DNA of 21,553 nucleotides from a virus: IMG/VR virus record IMGVR_UViG_3300033273_000136, positions 1 to 21,553 of that record. One strand, written 5' to 3'. Within the stretch, counting starts at the first letter, position 1, and each line of letters opens with the position of its first letter. The notes under the pieces are model-generated. The model ran no database searches and was not told the DNA's origin. It was given only the letters and a program-made list of their open reading frames with translations. Positions 7,926 to 14,979 of the stretch are shown in pieces. The translations under genes were made by a program, and so were the position numbers.

Positions 7926-9104
7926 ATGAAAAACACACACCTGGAACACCTAGAAGACAACATCATGAATGATGGGTCACGGGGTGGACGTGAGGCGATT
8001 GCATTTCTCCGATCACTTGGTGACATGTTGGATCAGGGTGCAGAGGATACTCGCGTGACCGTGAAGTGGGATGGTGCTCCTGCAGTTATCTGTGGTATCG
8101 ATCCACAAAAGGGTGACTTCTTTGTTGGTACAAAGTCTGTGTTCAACAAAGTGAACCCTAAGATCTGTTACTCTGAACAGGATGTGGATAAGATCTATCC
8201 ACCTGGACAACTTGCAGAGAAACTCAAAGCGTCATATCGATATCTTTCCAAACTTCCTATCCGTGGGGTAGTGCAGGGTGATCTCCTGTTCACTGATGAT
8301 AAGTATGTTGCAACCATCGGTGGTGATCGTTGCATTGCTTTCACACCGAATACCATCACCTATGCAGTGCCTGTAAAGAGTCCTTTGGGGCAGACGATTC
8401 AGACTGCTAAGTTGGGTATCGTATTTCACACCACATACTCTGGTAGTACTCTGGACACAATGGCTGCATCTTTTGGTGCGAATGTCCCTGGTGATGCGGA
8501 TGTGTTCGTTGCATCTGCAGAGTTCTCCAATGCGTCTGGTGAAGCCAACATGACTGTCACAGACAAGGCTAGGTACAACGCACTCATCAATCGTGCAGAG
8601 GGTTCTCTTCGACAATCCTCCAAGTTCTTGGATCTGATGAAGGGGAACGATAAGTTCTCTCTCAACTACATGTTCAAGATTTTTTTCAATCGTTATGTCC
8701 GTGAGGGTAAGTCTGGAATGACTGTCCGCAATACTGCGATGGACTTCGCGAAGTATTTCAGTGATGCCCTTGACAAAGAGATTGCATCAAAGAAGACAAA
8801 AAAGACACAAGATAAATACTTACAAATCAAGACCAATGGTCTTCGATTCATTTCTGCAAATTCAAATTCAATTTATATGACAGTTGCGTCGTATTACAAT
8901 TTGCAGGCAGCGAAACAGTTTATGATTAACAAGTTGCAAAAGGTAAATACTTTTGGCACTTTTCTCAGGACTGACGATGGTTACAGAGTCACTGCACCTG
9001 AGGGTTTTGTTGCAATTCGTTCTGGAAGAGCTTTAAAACTAGTAGATAGACTTGAGTTCAGTAGAGCCAACTTCACCGCAGCAAAGAACTGGGATAAACC
9101 ATGA
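7926..9104 (+). CDS. Ligase-like nucleotidyltransferase candidate (DUF6267-type phage protein)
   Basis: A protein of 392 residues. Near the N-terminus is VKWDGAPAV with K47-W-D-G50, matching motif I (K-x-D-G) of ATP-dependent DNA/RNA ligases and capping enzymes, where the lysine takes the nucleotide. FVGTKS follows at 66-71. VVQGDLLF at 115-122 could be motif III (usually G-E-L), and KLGIVFHTTY at 162-171 could be IIIa. No clear motif IV or V was found, so activity is uncertain. The opening HLEHLEDNIMNDG and the KWDG segment recall a family I remember as DUF6267 in marine T4-like phages. AAGG lies just one base before the ATG. The gene overlaps the next by four bases (ATGA), pairing it with another nucleotidyltransferase-type protein. 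Confidence 0.85.
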   Translation: MKNTHLEHLEDNIMNDGSRGGREAIAFLRSLGDMLDQGAEDTRVTVKWDGAPAVICGIDPQKGDFFVGTKSVFNKVNPKICYSEQDVDKIYPPGQLAEKLKASYRYLSKLPIRGVVQGDLLFTDDKYVATIGGDRCIAFTPNTITYAVPVKSPLGQTIQTAKLGIVFHTTYSGSTLDTMAASFGANVPGDADVFVASAEFSNASGEANMTVTDKARYNALINRAEGSLRQSSKFLDLMKGNDKFSLNYMFKIFFNRYVREGKSGMTVRNTAMDFAKYFSDALDKEIASKKTKKTQDKYLQIKTNGLRFISANSNSIYMTVASYYNLQAAKQFMINKLQKVNTFGTFLRTDDGYRVTAPEGFVAIRSGRALKLVDRLEFSRANFTAAKNWDKP

Positions 9105-10300
9105 AGAGTTTTAGTAAATTTATTCTTGAGGTTGTCACACAGGCATCCGATCAGGCCAAGAAGATGGGTCTGCAGAGTGATGGTCATGGCGATTATTATG
9201 ACAAGAGAGGTAAGTTAGTTGCCAAGACTGTCAATGGCAAACTGAAGTTCTTTGGTGCCAGTCGTCCACCCACTCCTGATGAAAGGAGTGCGATGGCTGC
9301 ACAACAACAGGCAGATGCAGAAGCCAAAGAGAAGGCAGAACGCGAAGAAGTCCGTAAGAGAGAGGGTGATCCTGCAGATCTGACAGTTGCGTTTGGTCGT
9401 TTCAATCCTCCTACGGTTGGACATGAGAAACTTCTGAACCGTGTGAAGAGTGCTGCAGGTAAGGGTGAGTATTTGATTTATCCTTCACGGTCAAACGATC
9501 CGAAGAAGAACCCTCTGGATCCCAAGACCAAGATCTCTTACATGCAAGCCATGTTCCCTGGCCATGCAGAGAACATCGTTGATGACCCAAGTGCAAAGAC
9601 CATCTTTGATGTTCTCAAGGGTGCCAGTGGTCGTGGTGCCAGAAGTATTAACATCGTTGTTGGTGCAGACAGACTCAAAGAGTTTGAGAACCTGGCAAAC
9701 AAATACAACGGTGACCTGTATGACTTCGATCGCATTCGTGTGATTTCTGCAGGTGAGAGAGATGCAGAGTCTGAAGGTGTGGAAGGAATGTCCGCATCCA
9801 AACTGCGTGCTGCTGCAGTCAAGGGTGACTTTGAAACCTTCCGTAAAGGTGTACCCAAAGCTCTGGGTGATGAAGGAACTGAAAAACTTTATGGCACCAT
9901 CCGTAAGAGTATGGGTGTCAAAGAGAAGGAAGTTCAGAAGGAGATGTGGAAGATCGCTCCTAAGTTTGATTGGAAGAACCTGAGAGAGAACTATGTGAAT
10001 GGTAATCTCTTCCGCATGGGTGACATCATTGAGAACGATAATACTGGATTGGTTGGAAAGATTATTCGTCGTGGTGCAAACTACATCATCGCGGTGACTG
10101 AAGACAACATGATGTTCAAGTCTTGGATTAAGGACATCGCTGAGAAGTTCACAGATGTGTCTGGTGTACCCCCAGATCAACGTTTGATTGGTACTGACGC
10201 ACACCGTGAATATGTTCAGCGTCTTGCACACAATCCAGTTATCATTAATTTTATAAATAAATCTAGGAAAAAACGTGCAAAGAGAAATGTTTCCAACTGA
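9101..10300 (+). CDS. Cytidylyltransferase-like protein with head-targeting-type leader and KOW-like domain
   Basis: A protein of 399 residues with three parts. Residues 1-10 are MKSFSKFILE, close to the T4 internal-protein leader MKTYQEFIAE, which ends in the E cut by the prohead protease. A charged linker follows (about 60-92). The core at 94-270 is a nucleotidyltransferase of the HIGH superfamily: GRFNPPTVGH at 99-108 gives the TxGH motif, VVGADRL is at 186-192, and SASKLR at 231-236 resembles the second nucleotide-binding motif. Such enzymes move a nucleotide onto a phosphate-bearing substrate; the substrate here is unknown. Residues 306-345 (GDIIENDNTGLVGKIIRR and after) look like a small KOW/SH3-like barrel. 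The C-terminus is basic. It overlaps the ligase-like gene by four bases. Confidence 0.9.
   Translation: MKSFSKFILEVVTQASDQAKKMGLQSDGHGDYYDKRGKLVAKTVNGKLKFFGASRPPTPDERSAMAAQQQADAEAKEKAEREEVRKREGDPADLTVAFGRFNPPTVGHEKLLNRVKSAAGKGEYLIYPSRSNDPKKNPLDPKTKISYMQAMFPGHAENIVDDPSAKTIFDVLKGASGRGARSINIVVGADRLKEFENLANKYNGDLYDFDRIRVISAGERDAESEGVEGMSASKLRAAAVKGDFETFRKGVPKALGDEGTEKLYGTIRKSMGVKEKEVQKEMWKIAPKFDWKNLRENYVNGNLFRMGDIIENDNTGLVGKIIRRGANYIIAVTEDNMMFKSWIKDIAEKFTDVSGVPPDQRLIGTDAHREYVQRLAHNPVIINFINKSRKKRAKRNVSN
10252..10259 (+). promoter_or_regulatory. Perfect T4-type late promoter TATAAATA
   Basis: This is an exact match to the T4 late promoter core, within the 3' end of the nucleotidyltransferase gene and 28 bases before the ATG of the next gene. 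Transcription from it would begin near 10265, leaving a short leader with AGGA. It supports late expression of the genes that follow. Confidence 0.65.
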
Positions 10301-11126
10301 TAGTTCAAGTAAATTTGACAAGTCGTTAATGGATGCGTACTCCTCCATTCACGAGGGTGCTAGAAAAGGTCACGCTGCTGGTGACTCTGACGTAGAGAAA
10401 CAAGCCTCTCAGTTGGCTTCTGACGTTCGTTACAAGGCAAAGGGTAAGGTAAAACCTGGTGCAAGTAAGGAACAGATGTTTAAGGTTTATATGTCTGTTC
10501 TTGCAAGTTCTCCTGCACCTGCAATTGTTAAAACTATGGCTAAAAAGAAACTTCTTGGTGAAGGCACCATGGACATCAGGGGATTTGAGATTCCTAAGTC
10601 CGAACGTGAAGCTGCTGCAAAGAGAATCAAAGATAAGACCAAGAAGAAAATGGCTGAGGGTGTTCGTGACGAAGATCCTGAAGAGGGTACTAAGAAGAGA
10701 AAGGAACGTCTTGAGAAGAAACGTGGTATGAAACTGGATGATCATCCTCAGTATAGGAAAGAGGAAGTTGAAAATGTTGATGAGATGATTGATCCTAAGG
10801 GTGCTGCCCGTATGGATGCTGCAAAGAAAAAAAAGAAGGTTGATGTCTTTGCTTATGACAGAAAACTTCAAGCACAAGGAAAACTTAAAGGTAAAAAACT
10901 TCCTCCCGCTCCAACTAATGAGGCACTTGATCCTGTAGGTCAGGAAGATGGTGATGTCAATAATGACGGTAAGAAGGATGGCACTGATAAGTATCTGATG
11001 AAGCGTCGTGGTGCTATCAAGAAAGCTATCGCCAAGAGACGTGAGAAGAGTGGTAAGAAAGTAAGTGAGGGATACTCCAGTTGGAGAATGGATCTCAATT
11101 ACTTTGAGGAAGAGGGAAAAAAGTAA
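10287..11126 (+). CDS. Probable virion-associated protein with dockerin-like calcium loop
   Basis: A protein of 279 residues, very rich in Lys and Glu and probably largely helical. The first part, to about 90, is better ordered and includes SIHEG (E23-G24) and LLGEG (E92-G93), both matching the T4 prohead protease pattern. Lysine-rich runs follow. At 223-234 the segment DVNNDGKKDGTD has acidic or polar ligands at positions 1, 3, 5 and 12 of an EF-hand/dockerin loop. SSWRMDLNYFEE closes the protein. ATG at 10287 is preferred over an in-frame GTG at 10275, since the late promoter at 10252 would start transcription about 20 bases upstream. The gene overlaps the preceding one by 14 bases. No enzymatic motif is seen; a role in the virion is inferred. 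Confidence 0.82.
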   Translation: MFPTDSSSKFDKSLMDAYSSIHEGARKGHAAGDSDVEKQASQLASDVRYKAKGKVKPGASKEQMFKVYMSVLASSPAPAIVKTMAKKKLLGEGTMDIRGFEIPKSEREAAAKRIKDKTKKKMAEGVRDEDPEEGTKKRKERLEKKRGMKLDDHPQYRKEEVENVDEMIDPKGAARMDAAKKKKKVDVFAYDRKLQAQGKLKGKKLPPAPTNEALDPVGQEDGDVNNDGKKDGTDKYLMKRRGAIKKAIAKRREKSGKKVSEGYSSWRMDLNYFEEEGKK

Positions 11127-11128
11127 AC

Positions 11129-11168
11129 GGGGCATCGCCTAAATCACCTCACTGTGTGGTGATGCCCC
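11129..11168 (+). promoter_or_regulatory. Hairpin covering the start codon of the following gene
   Basis: GGGGC (11129-11133) pairs with GCCCC (11164-11168), and ATCACC (11143-11148) pairs with GGTGAT (11158-11163). GGGGCATC can also pair directly with GATGCCCC. Both folds bury the candidate start codons at 11156, 11159 and 11162. No T-run follows, so it is more likely a translation control or processing site than a terminator. Confidence 0.5.
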
Positions 11169-13453
11169 CTAAGGACGATGATGATCCTGCATCGACCAAA
11201 GAGGTAGTTACTAAGAAACAAAAACAACTTCTCAATCGTGAGGAGTTGAACCTCGCTGCGATTGCAGAAGCCTTTGGTGGTCTTCTGTTAGAAGCACCTG
11301 CTAAGAAAGGATCTGGTAAAGGTTCTGATCTACCATTCAAAGAACCAGAACCAGATCCAGTATCTAAGAAAGATGCGAAAAAACTTCAGAGGATGACCAG
11401 AGCCTCTGGACCTGCAGCTGAAAGAATTCAGAGAGGACTTGAATCACAAGAGAAGTTAAGTAAGACAAGAAAAACACGTTCTTCTGCACAAACTTCAAAA
11501 TATCAGTTTGATCCAAAGACTGGAGCACCTACCAGAAAGAGTGTAGAGACTTACGCAACTAGACTTACAACTAGAGGTTATGGTGATGCAGGATATGATC
11601 CTTCGAAGAGAGGTGTATCCGATCCTGCTGGACAAGCTAAAGGTGTAAGAGATACTTTTGCAGCTGCTGATAGAGGTGATGCAAAAGCAAAACAACAAGT
11701 TCAGAAATGGACAGACGCTTTAACTAAAAAACATGGTCCATCCGCTGGGGTAACAGAACCTCGGGGTGGACAAAGAATCAGAAGTAGAGTTACTGGTCAA
11801 ACTAGACGGACTAGAACTTCTGCCGACAGAGGTCTTCGTGACATGCAGGGTAGAAAAGGTCAAGCACCTTTAGATCCTGAATTGCAAAGAGCTGCATCGC
11901 GTCGTGCAGGTCAAGTTCCAGACGAACCAACAGTTGGTAAACCAACGGTTAAAAAAGGTGAAGCTGCTAGAACCAGAGCAAGGGGTCAAGCACAAGCACA
12001 AGGTGCTGGAAGACCTGGACGTGGTTCAAGTGGTAGAACTGGTCGTCAGATTTTGAGATCTCTTATTGGTAGAGAAGCTGATATTGAAAGAATCAAGTCT
12101 GAAATTGATGCTAAGGAGAAGAGACAGGCTGAAAGAAGAAAAGCCGGTCAAGTAAAGAGACAACAAACTCTGGTTAGAAAAGACACTGCAACCAGAATAG
12201 GTGCTCAGGACACTCCTAAAGTTCGTAGCACACCAAAGGTCGGTGGTCCTGTAGGTGGATATAGAGCCCCTGCACAACCCACACCTGGTAATGTTGCAAG
12301 ACAAATGCAGGTTCCTAAAGGTGAGATGACCAGACTCAGAGCAAAAACCACTCCTAGCGGCCAACCTAGAGGTGCTAGTGGTGGTGATGCTGGTGCTAGA
12401 GCAAGAACAAGGTTAGCAATAAAACGAGCAACTGCAGGAAGCGATGCAGCCGCTAGACGTGTTGCATCCACCGCCAAACCCACACCCACGCCAACACCAA
12501 CACCAACACCTACGCCAACACCTAAACCAACACCTACGCCAACACCTAAACCAACACCTGTTGTAACTAGATCGGTTGGACAATCAGTAGCAGGTGAGCC
12601 AGTGCCTTCTTATTCCCCTCCACCAAGAACTGAGAGACCAAAGATTCTTGATGCAACTGATCGTTTTAATGATCGATTTGCAGCTGCCGCTGCCGATGAT
12701 CTTAAGAAATCTGGGCTTGGTGCTGACTTAGGTGCAGATGAGTTACTTGATAAAATTAATCAAGGTAGAAAATCAAAACCAACACCAACACCAACACCTA
12801 CGCCAAAACCAAAACTGCCTCAGTGGATGCAAGACTTCCGAAGAGGAGCTGAAAGGGCTCGCAAAAAGATTCCTTCAGTTGCTAAAATTCTTCCTGGTGT
12901 TCAAAAAGCTGCGATAGCTGCTGACATAGGTGCTGTTGTTGGAGGGGGAGTAGGTGAAATACGAAGAGCTCAAATTGACAGAAAACTTAAAAAATTACCA
13001 ACAACAAAAACGAAAACTGGCACAACGATCACTTACGTTCCTCCAGACAAAGATGGTAACTTCAATGCCCGCATGTATCCTGATGCAATCAAACAACTAA
13101 CAAAGGCACAGTTGGATGCACTGACTCCAGCACAAAAATACATGACTCAAGCTCAATATGATAAATCAATTGCTGGGACTGATCTGGCAATAAAGACGGA
13201 GCCAAAGACAGAACCGGCGACAGTAAAGGCACCTCCAAAACCAAAAGGTTCAGTGACAACAGCTGATCCGAATAATCAAACTGGAGTAAATCCAGACGCT
13301 GCTGCAGCCACTGCCGCTGCTTTGGCTGCAGCGAATCAGGTTAATCGTCGTGGAAGAAAAACTACCCGCAAAACTCCTGGAGGTGGTAGATTACCTGGTA
13401 TTGGACTGCCTGGTTATCGCGGAAAAATTGGTAGGAGATCGAATCCACAATAA
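11162..13453 (+). CDS. Large basic low-complexity protein with Thr-Pro linkers, probable virion or internal head protein
   Basis: A protein of 763 residues (765 if the GTG at 11156 is used), strongly basic and low in complexity, with many Arg, Lys, Gln, Thr, Ala and Gly. The start DDDD cluster is followed by a helix with AIAEAF (cut pattern E36-A37) and LLLEAP (E44-A45), both matching the prohead protease consensus. A long Arg-rich region to about 430 suits nucleic-acid binding. Thr-Pro repeats occupy about 440-466 and 540-550 and act as stiff linkers. A more hydrophobic, Gly-rich stretch (AAIADIGAVVGGGVGEI) lies between basic segments at about 575-600. The tail is Gly/Arg-rich. No Shine-Dalgarno sequence precedes the start, which lies inside a hairpin. 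No enzyme domain is recognised. Confidence 0.82.
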   Translation: MPPKDDDDPASTKEVVTKKQKQLLNREELNLAAIAEAFGGLLLEAPAKKGSGKGSDLPFKEPEPDPVSKKDAKKLQRMTRASGPAAERIQRGLESQEKLSKTRKTRSSAQTSKYQFDPKTGAPTRKSVETYATRLTTRGYGDAGYDPSKRGVSDPAGQAKGVRDTFAAADRGDAKAKQQVQKWTDALTKKHGPSAGVTEPRGGQRIRSRVTGQTRRTRTSADRGLRDMQGRKGQAPLDPELQRAASRRAGQVPDEPTVGKPTVKKGEAARTRARGQAQAQGAGRPGRGSSGRTGRQILRSLIGREADIERIKSEIDAKEKRQAERRKAGQVKRQQTLVRKDTATRIGAQDTPKVRSTPKVGGPVGGYRAPAQPTPGNVARQMQVPKGEMTRLRAKTTPSGQPRGASGGDAGARARTRLAIKRATAGSDAAARRVASTAKPTPTPTPTPTPTPTPKPTPTPTPKPTPVVTRSVGQSVAGEPVPSYSPPPRTERPKILDATDRFNDRFAAAAADDLKKSGLGADLGADELLDKINQGRKSKPTPTPTPTPKPKLPQWMQDFRRGAERARKKIPSVAKILPGVQKAAIAADIGAVVGGGVGEIRRAQIDRKLKKLPTTKTKTGTTITYVPPDKDGNFNARMYPDAIKQLTKAQLDALTPAQKYMTQAQYDKSIAGTDLAIKTEPKTEPATVKAPPKPKGSVTTADPNNQTGVNPDAAAATAAALAAANQVNRRGRKTTRKTPGGGRLPGIGLPGYRGKIGRRSNPQ
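12479..12559 (+). repeat. CCAACA/CCTACG-type microsatellite encoding Thr-Pro repeats
   Basis: Degenerate six-base units (CCAACA, CCTACG, CCTAAA) repeat through 81 bases and encode alternating Thr-Pro with two Lys-Pro steps. The longer unit CCAACACCTACG/CCAACACCTAAA is itself duplicated. It is in frame throughout the large basic protein. Confidence 0.85.
12779..12811 (+). repeat. Second Thr-Pro coding repeat
   Basis: A shorter copy of the CCAACA/CCTACG array in the same reading frame, about 220 bases after the first, encoding Pro-Thr-Pro repeats between lysines. It probably arose from the first array or by the same slippage process. Confidence 0.8.
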
Positions 13454-14347: not shown

Positions 14348-14719
14348 ATGAGATTTGATGCGCTGAATGAAAACAACTACATGATGTTTGCGATCAAACA
14401 TTATGATAACCCTCAAGCCGTAACCCAAGAAGATTTTTACGAGGACTTAAAAAAGTTCAAGTATATCAAACGTCTATTAAAGAGATATATTAAAACAGGT
14501 GAGCTCAAAACTCACCTGTTGTTAAATCATTTTATCTGTCTATACAATGTCTTTGGTGATGCAGCAACACCGTTGTTGTTTTATAAAATCGATAGAGATC
14601 TTTGGTCTGTATTGAAAACATTCCTTTTGTTCCTACAGAGAATACCAGAGTATCCCAAGACGAGTGTAAGTGATATCCCTGTAGACATACACTGTTTAGA
14701 TCAACTCAATAAGGTATAA
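14348..14719 (+). CDS. Conserved-type T4-like phage protein of unknown function
   Basis: A protein of 123 residues opening MRFDALNENNYMMFAIKHYD. It is likely all-helical, with KKFKYIKRLLKRYIKTGELK and a hydrophobic core segment LLLNHFICLYNVFGDAATPLL. The look matches a family common in marine T4-like phages (possibly the one called DUF7207), but I cannot confirm that. Its stop overlaps the next start as TAATG. No ribosome-binding site close to the start is evident; AAGGA lies about 18 bases upstream. It stands between late-type genes and the primase, so its timing is unclear. Confidence 0.78.
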   Translation: MRFDALNENNYMMFAIKHYDNPQAVTQEDFYEDLKKFKYIKRLLKRYIKTGELKTHLLLNHFICLYNVFGDAATPLLFYKIDRDLWSVLKTFLLFLQRIPEYPKTSVSDIPVDIHCLDQLNKV

Positions 14720-14979
14720 TGGACTCAAGACTATCCAAAGTCATCGACATGATTCGTTCCCGCCGTGGGGACTTACAGGAGTCTCCTACGATGTCTGCGG
14801 GTGCAGGTGGGTTCACTGGTTCTGCAGCTGCCACTGGTCCAGTTGCGGGATATGATCCAGTGTTGAACATCATTGATAGAAGAAAGAAGAAAAATAAAAA
14901 CTATCCAAAGGGATATGTGTCCATGTACCGTGCCTTGATGAAGGGTAAGAACATTTACAACGCAGTCAAAAATGTCTGA
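14719..14979 (+). CDS. Small basic protein of unknown function
   Basis: A protein of 86 residues. The first 20 form a charged helix (MDSRLSKVIDMIRSRRGDLQ). It then has a Gly/Ala-rich flexible stretch containing SAGAGGFTGSAAATGPVAG, then YDPVLNIIDRRKKKNKNYPK and a basic end. The Gly/Ala section resembles the linkers of several cyanophage structural proteins, which makes a virion link conceivable. The start overlaps the previous stop by one base and has AAGG at 14711-14714. It overlaps the next gene by eight bases. Confidence 0.72.
   Translation: MDSRLSKVIDMIRSRRGDLQESPTMSAGAGGFTGSAAATGPVAGYDPVLNIIDRRKKKNKNYPKGYVSMYRALMKGKNIYNAVKNV

What the first reader, a model, noticed from the sequence alone, without database searches (positions are those of the whole stretch)
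9101..9133. Nucleotidyltransferase carries a T4-type capsid-targeting leader
The protein at 9101 starts MKSFSKFILE. T4 internal head proteins start with the ten-residue leader MKTYQEFIAE, cut after the final E by the prohead protease gp21. Length, opening M-K-[ST]-[FY], hydrophobic positions and final E agree. If real, a catalytic enzyme of the HIGH superfamily is packaged in the cyanophage head and injected with the DNA, as T4 Alt is. The leader is seen directly; the packaging role is inference.
Basis: partly seen in the sequence, partly recalled or inferred. Interest (0 to 1): 0.72.

Follow-up and report, generated by a model that had tools for sequence, protein, structure and literature searches.

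The report
Ten-residue packaging tag on virus enzyme
An enzyme of a marine T4-like cyanobacterial virus begins with almost the same ten-residue tag that phage T4 uses to load proteins into its head; related enzymes have already been found inside purified virus particles, and the same tag sits in front of dozens of unrelated proteins in marine viruses, so it probably marks proteins that are carried into the next host cell.

Summary
The leader is real. The ORF at 9101-10300 starts MKSFSKFILE|VV. A leader profile built only from marine viral contigs ranks it far above every other start codon in the window (22.4 bits; next 0.4). On 44 kb of T4 the same profile puts ipIII, ipII and ipI first of 402 starts (22.9, 22.9, 13.4; next 3.9). 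In homologues fetched without using the leader, the conserved positions are 4, 7, 8 and 10, the positions T4 genetics assigns to targeting (4, 7) and processing (8, 10). [quoted passage not shown] In S-CREM2 all five top-scoring leader ORFs are virion proteins. In viral contigs the leader precedes about 50 unrelated families, and the neighbouring DUF6267 protein occurs with and without it. Best reading: a T4-type capsid-targeting sequence that loads a PPAT/NMNAT-fold adenylyltransferase into the prohead. Cleavage after E10 and injection are inferred. Virion presence of the enzyme was already published; I found no report of the leader as its mechanism. Split and jumbo-phage homologues lack the leader.

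The parts
9101..9130 (+). Capsid-targeting leader MKSFSKFILE, presumed cut after E10
   Evidence: Sequence; profile score 22.4 vs next 0.4 in the window; F4, F7, I/L8 and E10 conserved in homologues
9131..9133 (+). Residue V11, first of the presumed mature protein (A in most relatives and in T4 ipII/ipIII)
   Evidence: cleavage itself not tested
9101..10300 (+). Nucleotidyltransferase (cytidyltransferase-like, phrog_395), 399 aa, leader-bearing cargo protein
   Evidence: Pfam CTP_transf_like above cut-off; phrog_395 E=2.7e-102; relative of S-SM1 T4-GC190 and S-SCSM1_91, both detected in virions
9140..9262 (+). Small 'DGHGxxYD...VAKTVNGKL' module, residues 14-54, also found in the S-CREM2 virion proteins gp12 and gp14
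   Evidence: (phrog_3561)
9371..9919 (+). Catalytic domain, residues 91-273, PPAT/NadM/NadD adenylyltransferase fold
   Evidence: AlphaFold2 model plus VIA-align 2: Z 14.6, rmsd 2.8, 152 residues to PPAT 6b7a_A
9395..9424 (+). Nucleotide-binding motif GRFNPPTVGH (residues 99-108)
   Evidence: Conserved or invariant in the 49-sequence alignment
9788..9808 (+). Second superfamily motif MSASKLR (residues 230-236)
   Evidence: S231, S233 and R236 conserved
9983..10144 (+). C-terminal beta-rich domain, residues 295-348 (GDIIENDNTGLVGKIIRRGANYIIAVTEDNMMFKSW)
   Evidence: phrog_4808 and phrog_22379; strands 309-348 in the model; a separate ORF in P-HM1, S-CAM1 and ACG-2014h
7926..9104 (+). DUF6267 protein, RNA-ligase-like (KWDG motif), start-stop overlap with the leader gene; no leader here, but relatives carry one
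   Evidence: PF19782 E=1.2e-129; cassette comparison; weak structural matches mostly to RNA/DNA ligases, Z up to 7.7
10275..11126 (+). Neighbour sharing segments with S-SCSM1 virion proteins 89 and 92 (82% over 45 aa, 64% over 42 aa)
   Evidence: virion labels
11273..11293 (+). Leader-like possible protease site FGGLLLE|APAKK (residues 40-46) in the 765-aa low-complexity protein 11156-13453
   Evidence: Motif scan; resembles the presumed cyanophage major-capsid propeptide end ..FLAE|APT; inference only

Best explanation
The first ten residues are a T4-type capsid-targeting sequence. During late infection F4 and F7 bind the prohead scaffolding core (gp22 side), so the adenylyltransferase is built into the prohead. 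The gp21-type prohead protease then cuts after E10 (recognising I8-x-E10). The propeptide leaves, and the mature enzyme stays among the packaged DNA and enters the next host with it, where it acts before phage genes are expressed. Shown here: the leader, its conserved positions, its match to T4 internal proteins, its modular spread, the enzyme fold, and that leader-bearing homologues are reported in purified virions. Inferred: core binding, cleavage after E10, ejection into the host, and the substrate (NMN/NaMN or phosphopantetheine-like; fold and motifs do not decide).
For: (1) A profile built from marine metagenomic leaders ranks T4 ipIII, ipII and ipI 1-3 of 402 starts in T4 56-100 kb, and the window ORF first of 335. 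(2) In 16 divergent homologues fetched by internal peptides: F4 16/16, F/Y7 15/16, I/L8 15/16, E10 15/15, with positions 3, 5, 6 and 9 variable. Published T4 ipIII mutants: residues 4 and 7 target, 8 and 10 process (PMC9026906). (3) Homologues were detected by MS in virions: S-SM1 T4-GC190, confirmed as SSM1_190 by its GenBank note; S-SCSM1_91; S-SZBM1_140; S-CREM2 gp154. All four carry the leader. (4) In S-CREM2 the five top leader scores (gp154, gp136, gp14, gp13, gp6) are all among the 52 MS-detected proteins of 219 (p=6e-4); a start-anchored motif gives 4 of 4, p=0.003. (5) About 50 unrelated families share the leader; conservation falls to background from residue 12. (6) DUF6267 exists with and without exactly this cassette. 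(7) Presumed major-capsid propeptide ends in the same phages read FLAE|A, LLTE|A and ILTE|T, and gp21-type proteases occur in leader-bearing contigs.
Against: No N-terminal peptide starting at residue 11 has been reported that I could read, so cleavage is unproved. The proteomics authors themselves warn that abundant proteins might co-purify in CsCl. Some homologues lack the leader: split genes in P-HM1, S-CAM1 and ACG-2014h, and jumbo phages PBECO4 and XbC2. One leader ORF, SSCSM1_30 (106 aa), is not listed as a virion protein. Other virion proteins of the same gene cluster have no leader, so it is not the only route into the particle. The S-CREM2 test is small and the five-ORF cut was placed at a gap in the scores. 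The window is a 21.5-kb fragment without head genes.
Confidence: 0.86

Rival explanations
1. The leader is a docking helix for another assembly or intracellular partner (for example the neighbouring DUF6267 protein or a replication complex), and the enzyme reaches virion preparations as a contaminant.
For: The gene lies between helicase and primase/nrdAB genes, away from head genes. Authors of the proteomics papers raise carry-over.
Against: The same leader heads unrelated proteins far from this locus. It ranks T4 internal proteins first. Four independent virion proteomes contain the enzyme, and replication enzymes such as DNA polymerase are absent from the S-CREM2 virion list.
Confidence: 0.07
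2. The leader targets the protein into the prohead but is not removed; the intact protein works as a minor internal structural or DNA-condensing protein, and catalysis is incidental.
For: In T4, Asp at position 10 blocks processing but not targeting, and natural D10 variants exist, such as L242. The protein has a basic C-terminal end.
Against: E10 is kept in 15 of 15 divergent homologues and A11 dominates as in T4. Both catalytic motifs are conserved. The major-capsid sites of the same phages fit the same pattern.
Confidence: 0.1
3. The resemblance is convergent or chance: an ordinary amphipathic N-terminal helix.
For: Short motifs are easily matched by chance; GroES homologues (L162) show a look-alike.
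Against: The core motif is 33 times denser in the first 30 residues than inside S-CREM2 proteins. The gap between leader ORFs and the next start is 10 to 22 bits in T4, S-SM1, S-SCSM1 and the window. Asp or Lys at position 10 gives fewer real ORF starts than Glu.
Confidence: 0.02

Closest known systems
T4 internal proteins IPI, IPII and IPIII with their capsid-targeting sequence (Mullaney and Black 1996, reviewed in PMC9026906 and PMC3012670)
   Same: Ten-residue N-terminal leader MK[TS][FY]xxF[IL]xE followed by A/V/S; same critical positions 4, 7, 8, 10; diverse mature parts behind one shared leader
   Different: Here the cargo is a conserved catalytic enzyme, core to many cyanomyoviruses, with FxxF instead of YxxF; T4 IPs are small and poorly conserved, and none is an adenylyltransferase
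T4 Alt (packaged, injected ADP-ribosyltransferase)
   Same: An enzyme with an N-terminal propeptide removed by gp21, delivered with the DNA
   Different: Alt's propeptide is 7 residues by the literature (PMC9026906) and the conserved CTS is reported for IPII/IPIII, not for other core proteins (PMC9958956)
Cyanophage virion NMNAT/cytidyltransferase (S-SM1 T4-GC190, S-SCSM1_91, S-SZBM1_140, S-CREM2 gp154)
   Same: Direct homologues, 37-51% identical, all with the leader
   Different: Published as virion-associated proteins without any packaging signal or mechanism
PPAT (CoaD), NadM and NadD adenylyltransferases
   Same: Fold and the two sequence motifs of the catalytic domain
   Different: Extra leader, DGHG module, variable linker and C-terminal beta domain; substrate unknown

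Membership tests
T4-type capsid-targeting sequence (CTS) | Ten residues at the extreme N-terminus with targeting residues at 4 and 7 | tested here: met
   F4 16/16, F/Y7 15/16 in divergent homologues
T4-type capsid-targeting sequence (CTS) | Processing residues at 8 and 10 ([IL]xE) and small residue after the cut | tested here: met
   I/L8 15/16, E10 15/15, A11 10/16 and V11 4/16 (sequence only)
T4-type capsid-targeting sequence (CTS) | Transferable: one leader on unrelated proteins | tested here: met
   53 clusters; DUF6267 with and without the cassette
T4-type capsid-targeting sequence (CTS) | Recognisably the same signal as in T4 IPs | tested here: met
   Marine profile ranks ipIII, ipII, ipI first of 402 T4 starts (only 56-100 kb of T4 tested)
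T4-type capsid-targeting sequence (CTS) | Leader-bearing proteins are in the virion | tested here: met
   Literature lists matched to sequence: S-SM1, S-SCSM1, S-SZBM1, S-CREM2 homologues; 5 of 5 top leader ORFs in S-CREM2. The window's own protein was not assayed
T4-type capsid-targeting sequence (CTS) | gp21-type prohead protease in the same phage | tested here: inconclusive
   The window is a fragment without head genes; Peptidase_S77 found in 6 of 13 leader-bearing records, 5 of 6 longer than 85 kb, and annotated in S-SM1, S-SCSM1, S-CREM2
T4-type capsid-targeting sequence (CTS) | Cleavage after E10 by the prohead protease | not testable with these tools
   Needs N-terminal peptides from virions
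T4-type capsid-targeting sequence (CTS) | Leader necessary and sufficient for encapsidation; cargo injected | not testable with these tools
   Needs fusions and infection assays
HIGH-superfamily nucleotidyl/adenylyltransferase | GxFxPxTxGH-type motif and SxSxxR motif | tested here: met
   GRFNPPTVGH and MSASKLR conserved; Pfam CTP_transf_like above cut-off
HIGH-superfamily nucleotidyl/adenylyltransferase | Rossmann-like adenylyltransferase fold | tested here: met
   Z 14.6, rmsd 2.8, 152 residues aligned to PPAT 6b7a_A; NadM 13.8 and NadD 13.5 effectively tied
NMN adenylyltransferase (NMNAT) | Makes NAD from NMN and ATP | not testable with these tools
   Published name only; PPAT and NMNAT matches are tied

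The most novel reading that the evidence does not exclude
The leader is a general address tag used by marine T4-like phages to load a whole set of injected effectors: adenylyltransferases, RNA-ligase-like DUF6267 proteins, SAM lyases, kinases, ADP-ribosyltransferases, HicA-like and HD-domain proteins, a Cas9-annotated nuclease. It can therefore be read from sequence alone to list what these viruses deliver into cells.
Probability: 0.7. Interest if true: 0.86.

Novelty: new member of a known kind. Interest (0 to 1): 0.75.

Why it matters
Enzymes keep turning up in cyanophage virion proteomes, and their authors could not say whether they are cargo or contaminants. A short, scorable leader gives a mechanism and a prediction. 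It bears out a suggestion in the T4 literature that the CTS is a general way for T4-like phages to add proteins to their capsids (PMC9026906). It also turns metagenomes of abundant marine phages into a source of candidate injected effectors, including likely counter-defence enzymes.

Tried and rejected
Part of the Asp set belongs to the same leader families with a second [IL]xE just downstream, so Asp is not a clean negative control. GroES (L162) was dropped from the profile as a chance look-alike. The 62-relative set is partly fetched by leader patterns, so position conservation was recomputed on 16 homologues found by internal peptides only. A literature search for the leader strings found nothing; only open-access PMC was searched, so earlier notice in other papers is possible. 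Foldseek gave no significant match for DUF6267; VIA-align 2 gave mostly RNA/DNA ligases at Z 5-7.7, below the level I would call decisive. S-SM1 Table S8 and peptide-level supplements could not be read.

Full report
Observation. The ORF at 9101-10300 begins MKSFSKFILEVVTQASDQ. Its ATG overlaps the stop of the upstream DUF6267 gene. The window is the whole 21,553-base record, a T4-like cyanophage fragment whose genes read as DNA polymerase, UvsX, helicase, primase and nrdA/B-type products by eye and by order (compare S-SM1). The protein is phrog_395 'cytidyltransferase' (E=2.7e-102) with Pfam CTP_transf_like just above cut-off. It has matches in 536 phage records, mostly T4-like cyanophages.

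Is it more than chance? I built an 11-position profile from about 100 non-redundant leaders found in IMG/VR, scored on ten positions. I scored all ATG/GTG starts with at least 50 codons. In the window the finding's ORF scores 22.4 and the next best of 335 starts scores 0.4. In 44 kb of T4 the three best of 402 starts are ipIII 22.9, ipII 22.9 and ipI 13.4; the fourth is 3.9. The profile was not trained on T4. T4 ipI is 95 residues and its mature form 76, so it is cut after E19 (..TITE|A), behind a leader that begins MKTFKEF.

Which residues matter? In 16 homologues below 85% identity, fetched by internal peptides, F4 is constant (16/16), position 7 is aromatic in 15/16, position 8 is I or L in 15/16, and E10 is present in 15/15 with one gap; positions 3, 5, 6 and 9 vary. 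T4 mutant work summarised in PMC9026906 assigns targeting to residues 4 and 7 and processing to 8 and 10. In the leader set, the position after the presumed cut is free in the search pattern and is most often A (41 of 102), and information falls to background from residue 12.

Virion evidence. Sullivan et al. 2010 detected a putative citidylyltransferase, T4-GC190, in purified S-SM1 virions (PMC3037559). The GenBank note on SSM1_190 reads T4-LIKE GC: 190, and that protein is 42% identical to the window protein and starts MKKFSAFLNE|A. S-SCSM1_91 (51% identical, MKSFLQFLKE|A) is listed as a virion protein (PMC9602691). S-SZBM1_140 (MRFRQFIIE|A) is in that phage's virion proteome (PMC9146016). 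S-CREM2 gp154 (MKNFSSFLTE|A) is too (PMC10665884).

A blind test in S-CREM2. The five highest leader scores in its 174.9-kb genome are gp154 (17.7), gp136 (11.0), gp14 kinase (10.8), gp13 (7.5) and gp6 SAM hydrolase (6.6); the next is 4.4. All five are among the 52 MS-detected proteins of 219 (hypergeometric p=6e-4, with the cut placed at the gap). A start-anchored motif gives 4 of 4 (Fisher p=0.003). gp12, annotated as Cas9 and also in the virion, carries the motif near residues 18-25 followed by the same DGHG module as the window protein. S-SM1 has a single outlier, the cytidyltransferase. S-SCSM1 has two, the NMNAT and a 106-aa protein that is not listed as virion.

A mobile cassette. The first 120 IMG/VR contigs with M-K-[ST]-F-x-x-F-I-x-E gave 130 matches; 120 begin an open frame of at least 50 codons with an in-frame stop close upstream. 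Behind the leader lie 53 unrelated clusters. Pfam finds adenylate kinase, zeta-toxin-like kinases, ART-PolyVal, DUF3990, SAM lyase, HicA, HD, GNAT, HNH, DUF6267 and others. The best internal proof is DUF6267, the window gene directly upstream. Most relatives start M(A)KNTHLEHLED, but L100, L111, L165, L212, L260 and L151 start with the leader followed by the same sequence. With Asp at position 10 there are 68 contigs and 42 real ORF starts, with Lys 118 and 34. Several Asp cases have a second acidic [IL]xE or xEE site directly before a conserved SS[ML][ST]R start. In T4, Asp at 10 blocks processing but not targeting.

The enzyme. An AlphaFold2 model from 49 sequences (mean pLDDT 74.6) gives residues 91-273 an adenylyltransferase fold: PPAT Z 14.6 (rmsd 2.8, 152 residues), NadM 13.8 and NadD 13.5, effectively tied. 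GRFNPPTVGH and MSASKLR are conserved, so the enzyme should be active; the substrate is open. I therefore treat 'cytidyltransferase' and 'NMNAT' as names, not results.

Mechanism, with status. Core binding by F4/F7 and cleavage after E10 follow from T4 biology (established knowledge plus sequence match). Presumed major-capsid propeptide ends of S-SCSM1, S-CREM2 and S-SM1 read FLAE|A, LLTE|A and ILTE|T (the sites are my reading by analogy with T4). gp21-type proteases are present in leader-bearing contigs. Delivery into the host is inference.

Limits. The leader is missing where the gene is split (P-HM1, S-CAM1, ACG-2014h) and in jumbo phages (PBECO4, XbC2). Other virion proteins of the cluster lack it. 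No N-terminal peptide data were readable. Proteomics authors mention possible co-purification. The literature search covers open-access PMC only.

Verdict. The finding is right in observation and, as far as sequence and published proteomics can show, in interpretation. The enzyme's virion location was known; the leader that explains it, and its use on dozens of cargo families, appears to be undescribed in the library searched.

Noticed in passing
window 7926-9104: DUF6267 has an invariant KxDG motif plus EG and K[LV]V[DN]R motifs, and weak structural matches that are mostly RNA/DNA ligases (Z up to 7.7); it looks like an RNA-ligase-type nucleotidyltransferase paired with the adenylyltransferase.
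   Followed up: partly
L400:4656-5297, L085:23567-24211, L395:3706-4356, L405, L406: The gp21-type prohead proteases themselves end in a leader-like F..FL motif (e.g. LFNEFLNSL) in 11 of 14 sequences against 1.4% of ORFs by a slightly narrower motif; S-CREM2 gp12 and S-SCSM1 virion protein 93 end similarly (KTFRDFLN, RTFKEFLEYIE). Possibly a C-terminal version of the same core-binding signal.
   Followed up: partly
L399:7704-10313 (S-CREM2 gp12): A virion protein annotated as Cas9 carries the leader motif near residues 18-25 and the DGHG module seen in the window enzyme. Its nuclease annotation was not checked.
   Followed up: no
window 14719-14979: Small protein with the motif GAGGFTGSAAATGPVAGYDPV, like the arm just after the propeptide end of cyanophage major capsid proteins; similar small proteins are in S-SCSM1 (97) and S-CREM2 (gp160) virions.
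   Followed up: partly
L211, L217, L237, L252, L132, L202; S-CREM2 gp6: One protein family keeps a mature start [ST]S[ML][STN]R with [IL]xE or xEE directly before it while leader length varies, as expected for a cleavage site at that point.
   Followed up: partly
L394:44215-44535 (SSCSM1_30) and many IMG/VR loci (e.g. L094, L095, L120, L131): A 104-106-aa family MKSFKQFISESVNI..GDFNGNLY is one of the commonest leader carriers; it was not listed in the S-SCSM1 virion proteome.
   Followed up: no
window 11156-13453: 765-aa low-complexity protein with Pro-Thr repeats and a leader-like site FGGLLLE|APAKK near residue 46; no clear homologue in the proteome-tested phages.
   Followed up: no
L188:5900-9422: Five different leader-bearing genes within 3.6 kb, an apparent cassette array of cargo genes.
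   Followed up: no
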